Source: Candidatus Koribacter versatilis Ellin345 (GTDB taxonomy: Bacteria > Acidobacteriota > Terriglobia > Terriglobales > Acidobacteriaceae). Taken from it: 64,000 bases of DNA. The translations under genes and the position numbers were made by a program. Below the pieces are notes generated by a model, which was given only the letters and a program-made list of their open reading frames with translations, made no database searches and had not been told where the DNA came from. The stretch is taken from NCBI RefSeq assembly GCF_000014005.1, contig NC_008009.1:186001-250000 (forward strand), given 5' to 3'. This document shows positions 52,863 through 56,841 of this stretch, in pieces. Position 1 is the stretch's first letter, and each line of letters opens with the position of its first letter.

Positions 52863-54200
52863 TCACCGAGCGATGAAGTCCAGTGCTGAACCGAGACTAG
52901 CGCCTGTCAGTCTTCGATGCATCTCGATTGCGTGCCGTTCTGTCATGCCAGAGAGCAAATCGACCACTGCGCGCACAAGAGACCTTTCCTTCTCTGTCCC
53001 GGATTGTGACGACATATGAATTGCCTCAATATTTTCGCGATCGCTCGTCGGGAATATATGCGGCGCGTTCAGGGACTTCGCTTCCTCGTGGAAGATATTG
53101 AACAAGTCTTCAACTATCCGTTTTTGCCCGTATTGCTGTGTCGCGAGTGCGGGATTTTCAATCACGTAATGCCAAGTCAGCTGTTTCAGCATCTTCACTT
53201 CTTTTCTGAAACCCGGTGGAACCGACAGGAAAGCCTTTTTCCCATCCACTCCGACAGTCGAGTTGCTCACGTACCTGTTAATCAGCCCGGCAGTGAATGA
53301 GCGTAAGGCGGATCTTTGCTTCTGTGTGGCTCGGTACTCGACGTCCAGCGGAATGGTAATTGCCAGCTTATCGAAAGCTTCTTGCAACTCAGCAAATGCT
53401 TGATCGGGGAGCAATTCGTCGCGTTGCAGACGCTTTCTTGCACCATCATAAAAGCGCTGTCGCTCACCAGCGTCGGTTACCAGCAGGTGCAACGGAACAA
53501 GCCTCGCTCGGTAGAAGTCTTCGAGATCATGAACTGAGTACGTAATATCGTCGGACCAATCCATGATGCTAGCCTCAAGCGCCTGCTCGTCATCATTTGC
53601 ATTTTGCAGTTGGCGCGCGAATTTGAAATCGACAAGTTCGGCCTCATATGCTCCCCACTTACGATTCTTCTTCCCAGAGTTACCTCTCGCCCACGGGTAT
53701 TTCAGAACTGCGTTGAGCGTCGCGCGCGTTAAATTTAATCCTTCCATGTTCGAGGAGCGGAACGCGAGCTTGGTAATGATTCGAAAGCTTTGCGCATTGC
53801 CTTCAAAACCGTCCGGGAGATTCTGTTGTGTCGATAGTTTGTCCAACAGCACTTCTGAAACGTGACCGAACGGTGGATGGCCGAGGTCGTGAGCCAAGCA
53901 TGCAGCCTCGACAACGTCAGCATCGAGTCTCACTGAGAGAGAATTATCCGCAGCGAGAAACTTCTCGGCTAAACGACGCCCCACCTGCGCGACTTCTAGC
54001 GAATGTGTAAGACGGTTATGAAAGATGTGGCCTTCCTCGGACCCGACTACCTGGGTGATTCCGGCCAATCTTCGAAACGCTGACGTGAAGAGAATTCTGT
54101 CGCGATCGCGCTGCGCCGGGAGTCGATTGTCAGGAGGACGATCACTTGGGTGCCTGCGGTCAAACCTGCCAACGGCCTCGGGGTTGGTTCCGTTCGGCAT
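52863..54200 (-). CDS. HD-domain dGTPase-like deoxynucleotide triphosphohydrolase
   Basis: 445 residues from ATG at 54200, 2 bases after the previous stop. It starts with R-x-x-D-R-D-R-I-L-F-T-S-A-F-R-R-L-x-x-I-T-Q-V, the family N-terminal motif. HD metal ligands are H66 (NRLTHSLEV), H104-D105 (CLAHDLGHPPFGH) and D217/D218 in MDWSDDITYSVHDLEDF. The enzyme removes triphosphate from dNTPs. Housekeeping copies exist, but dGTPases also act in anti-phage defence by emptying the dNTP pool. Here it is the last gene of an XRE-ImmA operon, which favours an inducible role. Its codon use is more relaxed than its neighbours'. Confidence 0.93.
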   Translation of the reverse strand: MPNGTNPEAVGRFDRRHPSDRPPDNRLPAQRDRDRILFTSAFRRLAGITQVVGSEEGHIFHNRLTHSLEVAQVGRRLAEKFLAADNSLSVRLDADVVEAACLAHDLGHPPFGHVSEVLLDKLSTQQNLPDGFEGNAQSFRIITKLAFRSSNMEGLNLTRATLNAVLKYPWARGNSGKKNRKWGAYEAELVDFKFARQLQNANDDEQALEASIMDWSDDITYSVHDLEDFYRARLVPLHLLVTDAGERQRFYDGARKRLQRDELLPDQAFAELQEAFDKLAITIPLDVEYRATQKQRSALRSFTAGLINRYVSNSTVGVDGKKAFLSVPPGFRKEVKMLKQLTWHYVIENPALATQQYGQKRIVEDLFNIFHEEAKSLNAPHIFPTSDRENIEAIHMSSQSGTEKERSLVRAVVDLLSGMTERHAIEMHRRLTGASLGSALDFIAR

Positions 54201-54202
54201 CT

Positions 54203-54436
54203 TCAACGATTTCGTGTCGGACTGACCATTAGTGATTGAGTCTCAGAAAGCAATAACTCGCCCTGGGAAATCAAATGCCAAATTGCCTCCCGGACAGAAA
54301 TCGACGCGATCCGTAGCTGATCAGCGGTCTTAGAGATCACCTCGCTCGGTTCTAAGTCGGGGTGCATTCGGATGACTTCGAGGACTCTTTCCTCAACGGA
54401 GCGATCCAACGGGTAATTCGGTATGTGTGTAGCCAT
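54203..54436 (-). CDS. Small winged-helix-like protein of the dGTPase operon
   Basis: 77 residues from ATG at 54436 (AAAGGA upstream); an upstream TTG frame is possible. It begins MATHIPNYPLDRSVEERVLE, and the predicted helices LEVIRMHPDLEPSEVISKTA, RIASISVREAIWHLISQGEL and a beta pair LLLSETQSLMVS fit a compact winged helix-turn-helix. No known family is recognised. It lies 2 bases before the dGTPase start and 63 bases after immA, so it should be co-translated. It could be a regulator or an inhibitor of the dGTPase. Confidence 0.65.
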   Translation of the reverse strand: MATHIPNYPLDRSVEERVLEVIRMHPDLEPSEVISKTADQLRIASISVREAIWHLISQGELLLSETQSLMVSPTRNR

Positions 54437-54499
54437 AGAAAACGAATCCTTTGCTGCTTTTGTACTCACTGTCTGTTGGAAATCGCTCAATTAGTGCGA

Positions 54500-55024
54500 T
54501 CATTCAGGCGACAGCAAACCCAAATTCACTAGACGGTATTGCATCGCCAAGGGGCTTACTCGATATTTCCTTGCAAGCATCTTTAGGTCGTTGTCCGATA
54601 AATGAGCTTCGCCACGATAGGACGGCTTCAGGTCTCGATATAGAAATTCTGTTGGCATCAAAAGATTCGCAGCAAATGCGTTCGCTTCGATTTCTTTTTT
54701 GTCTGTCGCATCCGAGGACCTGCCATCTCGGCGAATCACAGTAAACCGCGAGTCAATGTATTCGCCTTCGTGATTTAAAGCGAAGTGCGCGAGTTCGTGC
54801 GCAACAGTAAACCGACGACGTGTTTGTGGATGCGCAGAGTTCACAGCGATACCCGTCATGCCGTTGCTGCGAATTAGGGCTCCAGACACTTCTCCGGCAT
54901 ACGCAGTTTCGATAATGGGGAGCCCCTCCGCTTCCGCAATACGTTCCACCGGAACGGGGCCGTCGTTTATGTTGTACTTCCGCAGGAGCTGCTCAACGCG
55001 CTGTTCTATTTCGGGTGGCCTCAT
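54500..55024 (-). CDS. ImmA/IrrE-family metallopeptidase
   Basis: 174 residues. The zinc motif is HELAH (76-80) in FTVAHELAHFALNH, with E113 of EIEANAFAANLLMPTEF as third ligand. N-terminal IEQRVEQLLRKYNI and the C-terminal RKYRVSPLAMQYRLVNLGLL helix-turn-helix-like segment are typical. ImmA proteases cleave a partner XRE repressor to start a mobile-element or stress response. The start overlaps the XRE gene stop by 4 bases (ATGA), so the partner is encoded just upstream. Confidence 0.92.
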   Translation of the reverse strand: MRPPEIEQRVEQLLRKYNINDGPVPVERIAEAEGLPIIETAYAGEVSGALIRSNGMTGIAVNSAHPQTRRRFTVAHELAHFALNHEGEYIDSRFTVIRRDGRSSDATDKKEIEANAFAANLLMPTEFLYRDLKPSYRGEAHLSDNDLKMLARKYRVSPLAMQYRLVNLGLLSPE

Positions 55025-55317
55025 TCTGCACCTTTCACGATTTCAGCGAGCTGGATCTTCGCCAATCTGACGAACCGGTCTTCGTTAGTAGGTTGATGTG
55101 CTTCCTCGACGTCATGCTCTGTCGGTATCAGTTCCATCGGGTGAATATCCAGAGCCTTTGCGAGTACAAATGCCTGCGCAATTTGCACATTCTGCCCGCC
55201 GCGTTCGATATTTGCGATCGTCACGCGTGATACGCCGATTCTTCTTCCGAGCTCAGTTTGGGAGATTCGGCGGGCCCGGCGAGCGCTCCCAAGACGGTGC
55301 CCAAACAACGTGTTCAC
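55021..55317 (-). CDS. XRE-family repressor, partner of ImmA
   Basis: 98 residues from GTG at 55317. The helix-turn-helix reads SARRARRISQTELGRRIGV, then SRVTIANIERGGQNVQIAQA, a textbook Cro/CI motif. The C-terminal part (DIHPMELIPTEHDVEEAH) is short. The open frame continues to TTG at 55392 and ATG at 55380, but a TTGACA promoter and three operator-like sites lie inside that extension, so the GTG start is preferred. It should repress its own operon (xre-immA-wHTH-dGTPase). Confidence 0.85.
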   Translation of the reverse strand: MNTLFGHRLGSARRARRISQTELGRRIGVSRVTIANIERGGQNVQIAQAFVLAKALDIHPMELIPTEHDVEEAHQPTNEDRFVRLAKIQLAEIVKGAE

Positions 55318-55331
55318 TATAGCCGGATCGA

Positions 55332-55392
55332 TTTGCACAGGATTTGCACAGCACCTAGTGCAATTCTCTGTGCAAAACATCCAGTTTGTCAA
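55332..55392 (-). promoter_or_regulatory. Promoter and operator sites of the XRE-ImmA-dGTPase operon
   Basis: On the minus strand a -35 TTGACA (55387-55392) and a -10 GAGAAT (55363-55368) are 18 bases apart. TTTGCACAG occurs at 55368-55376 (as CTGTGCAAA on plus) inside the spacer, and as two copies in opposite orientation at 55343-55351 and 55332-55340, covering the expected transcription start. The first copy and the others are inverted relative to each other, as expected for a dimeric repressor. Confidence 0.6.
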
Positions 55393-55509
55393 GTCTTACT
55401 TTTGATTGTGACAAGTCTAGCTTTGCAAATTAGTAATGCGTAATTAGTGATTGCGATCTTCGTTCCGATGTGGCACTCTCTTGTTGTGAGTACTAAGGCC
55501 CAAACAGGA

Positions 55510-55566
55510 ATCAGCCGCGGATGGAAGCCGCGGCTGATGTGGGCGACGGACGAGTCCGTCGTCGCC
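55510..55566. repeat. Two adjacent hairpins upstream of the DUF3892/E2-like genes
   Basis: ATCAGCCGCGG-ATGGAAG-CCGCGGCTGAT (55510-55538) is a perfect 11-bp inverted repeat. GACGGAC-GA-GTCCGTC (55545-55560), flanked by GGC and GCC, follows. They lie in the leader, 100-150 bases before the DUF3892-like start. This could be a REP-like element or an attenuator. The rest of 55318-55666 holds the operators at 55332-55392 and nothing else I recognise. Confidence 0.6.
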
Positions 55567-55666
55567 TCGCTTTGCGAAGCTGTACCCGCGACGATTATCT
55601 ACGTGAGAACGTCGGGTCGCAAGTGCCTCGTTGATACGGACTCAATTCAATCAGGAGGTGCCAGTA

Positions 55667-55999
55667 ATGGCACGATTCCGTATCACCTGCACAATCCACA
55701 GCGAGGATCACGAGCGCATCGCCGAAGTCGGTTGTGACGATGGCTCACGCTTTACCGAAAGCGAAGCGATCGCTCGCATCGAAAACCAAGGGGACGAATT
55801 CGTTGTTGATCGTCCTCAAGGCCACACCGCGAAGGTCATCGTCGAAAAGACGAAAGAGGGTCGCAAGTTCCTCAAGACCGAGGCAGACGGCGAGAAACCC
55901 AACAATCTTCTTTCCTTGCCCACTTGCAAAAAGCACGTTGAGACGCCCCCACCGCCGCGCGTCGTGGTACCCGCACGCTCGCACGGGGTTCGATGGTGA
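55667..55999 (+). CDS. DUF3892-like small protein
   Basis: 110 residues from ATG at 55667, with a perfect AGGAGG. MARFRITCTIHSEDHERIAE, then GCDDGSRFTESEAIARIEN and GDEFVVDRPQGHTAKVIVE fit the DUF3892 pattern (strand, I-x-x-V-G-x-x-x-G, helix E-A-I-x-x-I, strand). A basic and proline-rich tail follows, without terminal Gly-Gly. The function is unknown. It overlaps the E2-like gene by 7 bases, so both are made together; it may be a partner or substrate of the latter. Confidence 0.7.
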   Translation: MARFRITCTIHSEDHERIAEVGCDDGSRFTESEAIARIENQGDEFVVDRPQGHTAKVIVEKTKEGRKFLKTEADGEKPNNLLSLPTCKKHVETPPPPRVVVPARSHGVRW

Positions 56000-56841
56000 G
56001 CACCGCCACTTGGATTTCAACCGCTCCGGATCTGCAGTATTTCTATCCGGATTTCACTCCCGCGGAAGTGCCTTCGGGCACTTCTGCGCGGCGAGCTTGG
56101 ATTGGGCGGATCCAGCCGTTCACAGATGACGCGTCCGCCAGACTTGCATGGCGCCGGATGCAGCGAGACCTCGCAATCTCTATCGATCGCGGCACCATCC
56201 TACCGCCGCAATCCGCCCGCAAACTCGACCCGCACCCGCTTGAATCTCTGGCGGTCAATACCGAGATGTCGTTTGAAGTACTCCTTCTCGAATTCGATAA
56301 TCCGCAACATCCATGGGTGTATTGCGTAGCGCCGGAAGTCTCGCGCGATGTCTTCCCCGCGTTACTGCACATCCGGGAGGATCGTTCGATTTGGTTTCGT
56401 GGCCGCTACATTCCTGGGCTGTGTGTGTACTCTGCGTCGATATTCAAGTTCGAATCCTGGCCGTCGAAATCGGTCCAGGTGCTCGATCAAACGGCGACGT
56501 ACTTGGGAAAGCTTGTGATCTGGCTTCGGACTAGAAGGCTCTTCCACTTGAATTCAGGCGTTGTACTCTACACGCCCGCGCCAGGTGAACAGGTGCGCGA
56601 CACCGAGCCGCGCATCAATCGCAATTTTCCCGGAATCGCGAAGCAACTTCTGCCCATAACGAGAGCGTGGCGAGGCGTTTGGCCAGGAGGCGTAGCTCCG
56701 TTCGGTCCCGCCGGGCACTTTCAGACGATTGCACCGCAAGAGGAGTGTTGGTGTGGCAGCGGTGAAACGTACGGAAACTGCCACCGAAGGCAAGAGGCGA
56801 GCGTTCTCGGGAATACAGGAGACGGGACATCCCCCAACTAG
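55993..56841 (+). CDS. Putative prokaryotic E2 (UBC-fold) protein with C-terminal SEC-C zinc motif
   Basis: 282 residues from ATG at 55993 (GTG at 55996 also fits). Residues about 92-184 follow the bacterial UBC/E2 pattern: FEVLLLEFDNPQHPWVYCVA (strands, then P-x-V), ALLHIRED (the HPN-like region), and PGLCVY with candidate catalytic C144. Then SW at 155-156 and LDQTATYLGKLVIWLR form the helical end, as in E2-like proteins of type II CBASS. The C-terminus carries ECWCGSGETYGNCHRR (C252, C254, C263, H264), a SEC-C zinc motif. No E1 or CD-NTase gene is adjacent. The UBC assignment rests on motif order only and needs a structure or profile search. Confidence 0.6.
   Translation: MVSTATWISTAPDLQYFYPDFTPAEVPSGTSARRAWIGRIQPFTDDASARLAWRRMQRDLAISIDRGTILPPQSARKLDPHPLESLAVNTEMSFEVLLLEFDNPQHPWVYCVAPEVSRDVFPALLHIREDRSIWFRGRYIPGLCVYSASIFKFESWPSKSVQVLDQTATYLGKLVIWLRTRRLFHLNSGVVLYTPAPGEQVRDTEPRINRNFPGIAKQLLPITRAWRGVWPGGVAPFGPAGHFQTIAPQEECWCGSGETYGNCHRRQEASVLGNTGDGTSPN

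What the first reader, a model, noticed from the sequence alone, without database searches (positions are those of the whole stretch)
55993..56841. Possible free-standing bacterial E2 (UBC) protein fused to a SEC-C motif
Order of motifs (L-E-F-x-N-P-x-H-P-x-V, HIRED, G-L-C-V-Y, S-W, terminal helix ending IWLR) copies the core of E2-like proteins in type II CBASS and related conjugation operons, with C144 as candidate catalytic residue. A SEC-C zinc motif (C252, C254, C263, H264) at the end could recruit a target or ribosomal/translocation partner. No E1, JAB or cyclase gene is adjacent.
Basis: partly seen in the sequence, partly recalled or inferred. Interest (0 to 1): 0.75.

Follow-up and report, generated by a model that had tools for sequence, protein, structure and literature searches.

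The report
E1-less ubiquitin-like tagging gene pair
A soil bacterium carries a pair of overlapping genes, one for a ubiquitin-type conjugating enzyme and one for a small protein with a matching C-terminal tail, that looks like a minimal protein-tagging system related to a bacterial antiviral pathway but with a different tag.

Summary
The ORF is real: a UBC-like E2 with a C-terminal SEC-C. C144, the candidate catalytic cysteine, is present in 15 of 15 aligned sequences, three of them CBASS E2s. Without SEC-C the family still aligns with CBASS-type E2s (hhalign E 2.3e-9).

"Free-standing" is wrong. The gene overlaps a DUF3892 gene (55667-55999) by 7 nt. In 10 of 10 evaluable loci, window included, the ORF directly upstream ends in His-[Gly/Ser/Ala/Cys] plus 1-9 residues: DUF3892 in 8, a 40-49-residue Pro/His-rich ORF in 2. 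These DUF3892 extend 21-30 residues past the domain; 30 of 30 readable other DUF3892 stop within 6.

Cyclases beside a lone E2 in CBASS have similar tails, aromatic/His-Gly plus 1-4 residues, in 8 of 8 read, including Serratia CdnG. All 10 loci have a CapP-like peptidase gene nearby.

Best reading (inferred, 0.6): an E1-independent E2 that trims the tail and conjugates the DUF3892 protein, i.e. E2-only CBASS conjugation with the cyclase replaced. Activity, target and phenotype are untested.

The parts
55993..56841 (+). E2-like (UBC) protein with C-terminal SEC-C, 282 aa
56026..56538 (+). UBC-like core (aa 12-182); holds an insert (about aa 45-90) relative to the short CBASS E2s of Brasilonema and Runella, an insert also seen in the G419 and G181 E2-SEC-C proteins
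   Evidence: hhalign to CBASS-type E2 core; AF2 secondary structure; VIA-align
56422..56424 (+). codon of candidate catalytic Cys144
   Evidence: C in 15 of 15 aligned sequences; aligned with the CBASS-type E2 Cys
56746..56784 (+). SEC-C motif, aa 252-264 (C252, C254, C263, H264)
   Evidence: Pfam SEC-C E 4.7e-6
55667..55999 (+). DUF3892 protein, 110 aa: proposed conjugated modifier; its stop overlaps the E2 start by 7 nt
   Evidence: Pfam DUF3892 E 1.4e-19
55928..55996 (+). C-terminal extension of the DUF3892 protein (aa 88-110), ending ...RVVVPARSHGVRW; proposed donor tail for the E2
   Evidence: present in 8 of 8 E2-linked DUF3892, absent from 30 of 30 readable other DUF3892
55982..55987 (+). 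His106-Gly107 codons: proposed cleavage/conjugation point, leaving V-R-W as released peptide (inferred)
   Evidence: H followed by G/S/A/C in 10 of 10 loci; codons vary in the 7 loci printed
55021..55392 (-). XRE-type HTH regulator (CapH-like), divergent; start codon uncertain
   Evidence: HTH_3 E 9.7e-12; PADLOC capH E 1.1e-7 among other HTH models of similar score
54500..55024 (-). ImmA/IrrE (M78) metallopeptidase (CapP-like), partner of the HTH
   Evidence: PF06114 E 1.2e-21; best PADLOC hit capP E 1.7e-31; capP also best hit for the M78 gene at the 9 other loci
55393..55666 (.). divergent intergenic region, presumably holding both promoters and the HTH operator (not analysed)
   Evidence: gene order; inference

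Best explanation
The gene pair 55667-56841 is an E1-independent ubiquitin-like conjugation module. SHOWN (sequence level): (1) the second protein is an E2 homologous to the E2s of E2-only (type II-short) CBASS, with the Cys conserved and a SEC-C added; (2) the overlapping first gene encodes a small protein, usually DUF3892, that in this setting carries a C-terminal extension with a conserved V-x-P-x-x-S-H-G-like end plus a few residues, like the C-termini of the cyclases beside lone CBASS E2s; (3) all 10 loci read have a nearby M78 metallopeptidase gene most like CapP, with an XRE-type HTH gene in 8. INFERRED: the E2 uses Cys144 to attack the peptide bond after His-Gly (or His-Ser/Ala/Cys), releasing the last residues and holding the modifier as a thioester, so that no ATP and no E1 are needed; it then transfers the DUF3892 protein to a lysine on itself, on another copy or on a target; SEC-C helps choose the target; the HTH/M78 pair switches the operon on under stress such as phage attack. 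DUF3892, proposed elsewhere to sense RNA or ribosomes, would be the sensor or effector that is activated or positioned by conjugation, in the place the cyclase holds in CBASS.
For: E2 homology without SEC-C: hhalign Prob 96.2, E 2.3e-9, C144 on the Cys of the other profile (3 of the 5 sequences of that profile are classic short CBASS E2s, 2 are E2-SEC-C bridges). Links: the window-family profile finds the G419 E2 over its core (E 1.7e-9); that E2 matches a PADLOC CBASS E2 model at 1.8e-14, best stretch aa 86-173, and by tblastn finds 3 plasmid records, 2 with a cyclase directly before the E2 and 1 with an E2 before a SAVED gene; the Brasilonema E2 is homologous to the solved Serratia E2 8hsb_B (7.5e-19). 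Structure: rows shown are nearly all UBC/UEV proteins, with 8yjy_B Serratia CdnG-E2 Z 7.7, rmsd 3.7, 120 aligned, and Cap2 7tqd_B Z 7.6, rmsd 4.0, 120 aligned. Cys144 15 of 15. Modifier ORF directly upstream in 10 of 10 evaluable loci, tail H-[G 5, S 3, A 1, C 1] + 1-9 residues; 30 of 30 readable control DUF3892 lack the extension; codons and distance to the E2 start vary. Cyclase tails beside lone CBASS E2s: KFHG|TEQS, LFYG|D, PTFG|SDE, TWFG|D, TWYG|N, TFYG|S, SFFG|EE, and Serratia CdnG VPKNTFYG|E. capP best PADLOC hit for the M78 gene in 10 of 10. E2-only CBASS has been proposed to conjugate cyclase to cyclase (PMC11153139, passages).
Against: No biochemical data exist for this family in what I saw. 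Gly is not invariant: Ser, Ala or Cys replaces it in 5 of 10, and in an E1-using Cap2 system changing the C-terminal Gly to Ser abolished conjugation (PMC10097602, passages). The same paper reports no conservation of cGAS C-terminal residues in CBASS operons of other architectures than full-length Cap2 plus Cap3, which is in tension with my 8 of 8, unless the variable extension hid it. The AF2 model of the E2 is poor (mean pLDDT 51.8); Foldseek gave no hit at E <= 0.001 and ranked unrelated proteins above the UEV rows; Z stays below 8. PADLOC E2 models reach only the SEC-C of the window protein, give nothing for G321 (E <= 1) or G675, G612 and G708 (E <= 0.01), and hit the core only in G419 and weakly in G403 (2.8e-5), besides short weak matches. 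The Trp after the Cys in CBASS-type E2s is missing. All 10 loci come from one bacterial family (in 396 genomes of the phylum only 3, all of that family, had rows with E <= 1e-50), so tails are partly alike by descent. DUF3892 also occurs alone or with an E1. H[GASC] in the last 11 residues occurs in 71 of 716 (9.9%) mechanical ORFs anyway.
Confidence: 0.6

Rival explanations
1. The DUF3892 tail is a docking peptide: it binds the E2 non-covalently (as PTAP-like peptides bind UEV domains), and DUF3892 is an adaptor or target. The E2 is then charged in trans by some E1, or acts without catalysis.
For: Best structural rows include UEV domains with Pro-rich peptides; most tails are Pro-rich; the residue after His varies; DUF3892 also sits in operons with a ThiF-type E1 and an E2.
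Against: C144 is identical in 15 of 15, unlike UEVs, which lack the Cys (recalled). Tails resemble those of cyclases beside lone CBASS E2s, with a short extension past the same point. No E1 gene among the six proteins scanned; an E1 elsewhere in the genome was not searched for.
Confidence: 0.2
2. The E2 only trims the tail: a cysteine-dependent maturation step that activates DUF3892, with no conjugate formed.
For: All 10 tails end a few residues beyond the conserved point; C-terminal processing is part of the Serratia CBASS E2 cycle (recalled from the abstract of Yan et al. 2024; only its title was seen, in a reference list).
Against: UBC proteins are known as transferases (established knowledge); a conserved tail before the cut suggests that the acyl part is used. 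Nothing here distinguishes the two directly.
Confidence: 0.12
3. The tail motif is conserved at DNA level as ribosome-binding or coupling signal for the overlapping E2 gene, or by shared descent, and means nothing for the protein.
For: In the window CACGGGG lies just before the E2 ATG.
Against: Codons of the conserved residues vary among the seven loci printed, and the distance from the motif to the E2 start marker differs among the six loci where it was printed; two loci have an unrelated tiny ORF with a like end.
Confidence: 0.03
4. It is a decayed CBASS: cyclase lost, E2 and regulators left behind.
For: E2 and capP-like regulators match CBASS; degenerate copies exist (G103:C34, Edaphobacter fragment).
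Against: Complete ORFs with conserved gene order in 8 DUF3892 loci across several genera, a co-conserved tail, and a different partner gene.
Confidence: 0.05

Closest known systems
Type II-short (E2-only) CBASS, e.g. Serratia marcescens CdnG-E2 (PDB 8hsb/8yjy/9kkb)
   Same: Single E2 without an E1 or JAB gene seen beside it; partner gene directly upstream; tail with aromatic/His-Gly and a short extension; E2 core homologous; CapP/CapH-like regulators also occur with CBASS (PMC11153139, passage)
   Different: No cyclase and no SAVED or other CBASS effector next to it; the partner is DUF3892 or a 40-49-residue ORF; the E2 is longer, with an insert and SEC-C
CBASS E2-SEC-C proteins
   Same: UBC core followed by SEC-C
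   Different: L010's sits beside a CD-NTase and an HNH-SAVED effector; the window protein is diverged from it (24% identity) and PADLOC models reach only its SEC-C
Type II CBASS Cap2/Cap3
   Same: Non-ubiquitin protein conjugated through its C-terminus (PMC10097602, passages)
   Different: Cap2 has an E1 domain and Cap3 is an isopeptidase; neither was found here
DUF3892 with E1 operons (L061, L062, L068)
   Same: DUF3892 next to an E2 gene and, by eye, to HTH/M78-like genes
   Different: Those carry a ThiF protein (with a JAB-like part, by eye), and their DUF3892 has no tail (1-3 aa after the end Cys)
Min-Wnt-DUF3892 proteins (PMC12419801, passage)
   Same: DUF3892 as the likely sensing domain in a conflict system
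   Different: Fused effector there; separate gene with a C-terminal tail here

Membership tests
UBC/E2 superfamily | Sequence homology to known E2s over the UBC core | tested here: met
   hhalign A7 vs A8, SEC-C removed: Prob 96.2, E 2.3e-9
UBC/E2 superfamily | UBC fold | tested here: inconclusive
   Low-confidence model (pLDDT 51.8); the rows shown by VIA-align are nearly all UBC/UEV, Z up to 7.7, below the tool's caution level of 8; Foldseek no E <= 0.001
UBC/E2 superfamily | Catalytic Cys conserved | tested here: met
   C144 in 15 of 15
UBC/E2 superfamily | Thioester formation and transfer | not testable with these tools
   needs biochemistry
Type II-short CBASS | CD-NTase and cyclic-nucleotide effector in the operon | tested here: not met
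   Neighbours scanned are DUF3892, HTH, M78, a 95-aa protein with no Pfam or PADLOC match, and a dGTPase
Type II-short CBASS | Lone E2 with a donor protein upstream that carries a Gly-plus-extension tail | tested here: inconclusive
   Tails in 10 of 10 loci end H-small + 1-9 aa, but Gly itself in only 5; compare cyclase tails 8 of 8. In the window itself the residue is Gly. That the tail is a donor is not shown
Bil / other E1-E2-JAB operons | E1 (ThiF) and JAB genes | tested here: not met
   None in the six proteins scanned; outer genes judged by eye from the ORF list only
SEC-C | CxC...C[HC] zinc motif | tested here: met
   PF02810 E 4.7e-6, above cut-off; Cys in 13 of 13 members
DUF3892 (upstream partner) | PF13031 match | tested here: met
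   E 1.4e-19, cut-off passed
CapH/CapP-type regulation | HTH plus M78 metallopeptidase beside the operon | tested here: met
   capP best PADLOC hit E 1.7e-31; capH 1.1e-7 but other HTH models score similarly; M78 at 9 other loci capP 5.8e-24 to 5.3e-52
CapH/CapP-type regulation | Stress- or DNA-damage-triggered derepression | not testable with these tools
   needs experiment
Ubiquitin-like beta-grasp fold for DUF3892 | beta-grasp fold | tested here: inconclusive
   AF2 order b-b-(b)-a-b-b-b, pLDDT 70.5; Foldseek no E <= 0.001; best VIA Z 4.2

The most novel reading that the evidence does not exclude
E1-independent E2 conjugation is a portable chemistry and not a CBASS feature: one E2-SEC-C lineage works with interchangeable modifiers (cyclase, DUF3892 domain, or a probably disordered peptide of 40-49 residues) that share only a C-terminal His/aromatic-Gly-like tail followed by a discarded peptide. 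The modifier need not be a ubiquitin fold, and the smallest ones would be unusually small for a conjugated protein.
Probability: 0.42. Interest if true: 0.9.

Novelty: new variant of a known kind. Interest (0 to 1): 0.77.

Why it matters
[quoted passage not shown] This pair is a concrete candidate, found through its tail and not through a ubiquitin fold. It would separate E2-only conjugation from cyclic-nucleotide signalling, give a first biochemical handle on DUF3892, and can be tested with two small proteins in one co-expression experiment.

Tried and rejected
Direct profile hits: Pfam, NCBIfam, PHROGs and PADLOC give the window protein only SEC-C, noise or nothing; PDB by sequence only SecA zinc fragments at E 0.38 or worse. 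tblastn of the window protein in plasmids found nothing; of L010's E2 nothing; of the Granulicella homologue one weak match, E 0.2. Two viral-contig scans with E2 alignments found no relative; a phage search with the G419 E2 none. The first genome-contig scan found nothing; the second found two Granulicella S190 loci and an Edaphobacter fragment; both scans rest on short peptide patterns and can miss diverged relatives.

Most matches of the profile searches cover SEC-C alone, often in ORFs of about 1000 aa (presumably SecA), and were set aside: 206 of 398 genomes matched at E <= 0.001, and 12 rows in 11 genomes at E <= 1e-50. Dropped from the tail count: G103:C34 (its 5' part lies in another frame with a stop, and no DUF3892 was recognised beside it) and G611 (contig edge). 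G105 has an orphan E2-SEC-C without a readable partner. From the E2 loci, G246 (contig start) and G089 (ThiF-like gene beside it, by eye) were not used for cyclase tails.

Dropped from the DUF3892 control as unreadable by the end pattern: 2 of 19 viral and 4 of 12 phylum loci; one of the four, L048, visibly ends NLLSLPECP. The 12 are the 14 loci without the window's and Granulicella's own. The 5 plasmid genes lie on 4 plasmids that I picked from 75 matching records. The surroundings of the viral controls were read only for L160, so their not being linked to such an E2 rests.

Ubiquitin fold for DUF3892: not shown. PDB search with the DUF3892 profile: no match. dGTPase as a part of the system: rejected, as I recognised none by eye beside the other loci. 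RBS explanation of the tail: rejected.

Literature: library searches listed no paper that I recognised as treating DUF3892 with an E2; only listings and passages were seen, and the library lacks most subscription papers and preprints.

Full report
1. What is there. ORF 55993-56841 (+), 282 aa, is open and conserved. The genome is one contig of 5,650,368 bases; from memory this size fits Candidatus Koribacter versatilis Ellin345, which no call confirms. Pfam finds only SEC-C (E 4.7e-6). Divergently transcribed are an XRE HTH gene (55021-55392) and an ImmA/IrrE M78 peptidase gene (54500-55024), the latter closest among PADLOC models to CapP of CBASS (E 1.7e-31).

2. Relatives. Profile searches within the window's family found E2-SEC-C homologues in 11 of 398 genomes (12 rows with E <= 1e-50; earlier). 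Ten loci can be read upstream of the E2: window, G103:C1, G537, G321, G675, G554, G612, G708, G403, G419. Two cannot: G103:C34 is broken and G611 lies at a contig edge. In a sample of 396 genomes of the phylum only three, all of this family, had rows with E <= 1e-50, so the known spread is narrow.

3. It is an E2. C144 and H126 are identical in 15 of 15 aligned sequences, among them three E2s that sit beside a cyclase (Brasilonema, Runella, G181) and two fragments. The G419 member is the bridge: the window-family profile finds its core (E 1.7e-9), a PADLOC CBASS E2 model matches it at 1.8e-14 with the best stretch at aa 86-173, and tblastn with it in 72,556 plasmids returns three records, two with a nucleotidyltransferase gene directly before the E2 and one with an E2 before a SAVED gene. 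With SEC-C removed, a profile of five window-type E2s aligns with a profile of five CBASS-type E2s (three short CBASS E2s, G181 and G419) at Prob 96.2, E 2.3e-9, placing C144 on the shared Cys. The AlphaFold2 model is weak (pLDDT 51.8, three sequences) and Foldseek alone gives no significant hit, with unrelated proteins above the UEV rows; the second-look aligner puts UEV domains, the Serratia CdnG-E2 complex (8yjy_B, Z 7.7, rmsd 3.7, 120 aligned) and Cap2 (7tqd_B, Z 7.6) on top. Fold evidence alone is therefore supportive, not decisive. PADLOC models miss the core of the window protein and of G321, G675, G612 and G708.

4. The partner and its tail. In 8 of 10 loci the gene immediately upstream is DUF3892 with an extension of 21-30 residues after the domain's end Cys; the five aligned share V-x-x-A-x-S-H. 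Ends: RVVVPARSHGVRW (window), RPVAPARSHGVHGNWELL (G103), RPVQPARSHSVGADWRSL (G537), VRVVPAASHSVQA (G321), TRTVPAHSHSV (G675), TVVAAASHGPSVWW (G554), YRPAPVQRGHCVGVKLLK (G612), YRPVSVHRGHAVSKVWKGNR (G708). In the other two the upstream ORF is tiny and shows no DUF3892: 40 aa ending GRDVHPPRPHGTPPMRCN (G403) and 49 aa ending GRDVRPRGSHGDC (G419). So in 10 of 10 a His is followed by Gly (5), Ser (3), Ala (1) or Cys (1) and then 1-9 residues. The background for such a dipeptide in the last 11 residues is 71 of 716 mechanical ORFs of at least 120 aa in the sequences held; because the loci are related, this is no formal test.

5. Controls. Other DUF3892 proteins stop 0-6 residues after the end Cys in 30 of 30 readable cases: 17 of 19 viral contigs, 8 of 12 loci of the phylum, 5 of 5 plasmid genes; six were unreadable by the pattern used, and the surroundings of the viral ones were mostly not read. 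Codons of the conserved residues vary among the seven loci printed, and the distance from the motif to the E2 start marker varies among the six for which it was printed, so the conservation lies in the protein. E2 start codons are assumed, not proven.

6. The same tail logic in E2-only CBASS. Cyclases directly before a lone E2, as far as the stretches show, end in aromatic/His-Gly plus 1-4 residues: Brasilonema FHG|TEQS, Runella FYG|D, G181 TFG|SDE, G299 WFG|D, G227 WYG|N, G029 FYG|S, G259 FFG|EE, and the solved Serratia CdnG FYG|E, aligned to its last residue: 8 of 8 read. In G181 the register is close: V-P-R-P-T-F-G|SDE against V-P-A-R-S-H-G|VRW in the window, and its E2 also carries SEC-C. 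Against this, PMC10097602 reports no conservation of cGAS C-terminal residues outside operons with full-length Cap2 and Cap3 (passage); a variable extension past the Gly could blur such a comparison. That the Serratia E2 processes the cyclase C-terminus and makes cyclase chains is recalled from the abstract of Yan et al. 2024 (not held; title seen in a reference list); cyclase-cyclase conjugation as a proposal for the E2-only type is stated in PMC11153139 (passages).

7. Setting. An M78 peptidase gene with capP as best PADLOC match lies in the divergent block at 10 of 10 loci; at G708 two other genes stand between. An XRE-type HTH gene is beside it in 8 of 10 (Pfam for the window and G103; by eye for six). 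PMC11153139 names CapP-CapH as a way to regulate CBASS expression (passage). DUF3892 also occurs with E1-type operons: L062 has Prok-E2_E (1e-6), a ThiF protein (5.9e-33) with a JAB-like N-terminal part seen by eye, and DUF3892; L061 is alike by eye; L068 has DUF3892, a weak Prok-E2_E (0.0038, below cut-off) and ThiF (1.4e-33). DUF3892 has been proposed to sense RNA or ribosomes in antiviral proteins (PMC12419801, passage). A defence role is therefore likely but unproven.

8. Mechanism proposed. Translation-coupled production of modifier and E2; attack of Cys144 on the bond after His-Gly; release of a short peptide; thioester; transfer to an amine. No ATP or E1 would be needed because a peptide bond is exchanged. 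Everything after the sequence evidence is inference.

9. Weak points. Gly is not strict; Ser at the C-terminal place abolished conjugation in an E1-using Cap2 system (PMC10097602, passages), although the chemistry proposed here differs. All ten loci are from one bacterial family. The target, the role of SEC-C and any phenotype are unknown. A docking-peptide role of the tail cannot be excluded.

10. Verdict. The E2-SEC-C itself is a diverged member of a known kind; the new element is its pairing with a tail-bearing DUF3892 or tiny peptide in place of a cyclase.

Noticed in passing
window 52863-54206 (-): dGTPase-like HD phosphohydrolase (PADLOC dGTPase E 4.5e-99) placed operon-like after the HTH/M78 genes, with a 95-aa protein without Pfam or PADLOC match (54203-54490) between; none recognised by eye at the other loci read.
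   Followed up: partly
L061 9818-11976, L062 6338-8718, L068 5561-8049: DUF3892 genes inside or next to E2 plus ThiF (JAB-like part by eye) operons, with HTH/M78-like genes nearby by eye: DUF3892 seems a recurrent companion of bacterial ubiquitin-like systems.
   Followed up: partly
L010 5887-9811: CBASS operon with HNH-SAVED, CD-NTase, E2-SEC-C and an additional 340-aa gene directly after the E2 that was not identified.
   Followed up: no
L096 1190-1309 and L097 7805-7954: Tiny Pro/His-rich ORFs (40 and 49 aa) in front of E2-SEC-C genes, sharing GRDV and a His-Gly near the end; candidates for minimal modifiers.
   Followed up: partly
L111 4194-5273 (Sulfitobacter plasmid): Two tandem DUF3892 genes with divergent HTH and M78 genes and no listed E2: the DUF3892-HTH-M78 set exists without conjugation genes.
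   Followed up: no
L100 1-5745 (Chroococcidiopsis plasmid): Multiubiquitin/E2/Mov34 operon with HTH/M78, then an IS4 element, then a CBASS-type E2 and a SAVED gene without a listed cyclase.
   Followed up: no
L009 8067-8747 (-) and L045 2320-2553: Broken copies of the E2-SEC-C gene in Granulicella S190 and Edaphobacter aggregans, which suggests turnover of the system.
   Followed up: partly
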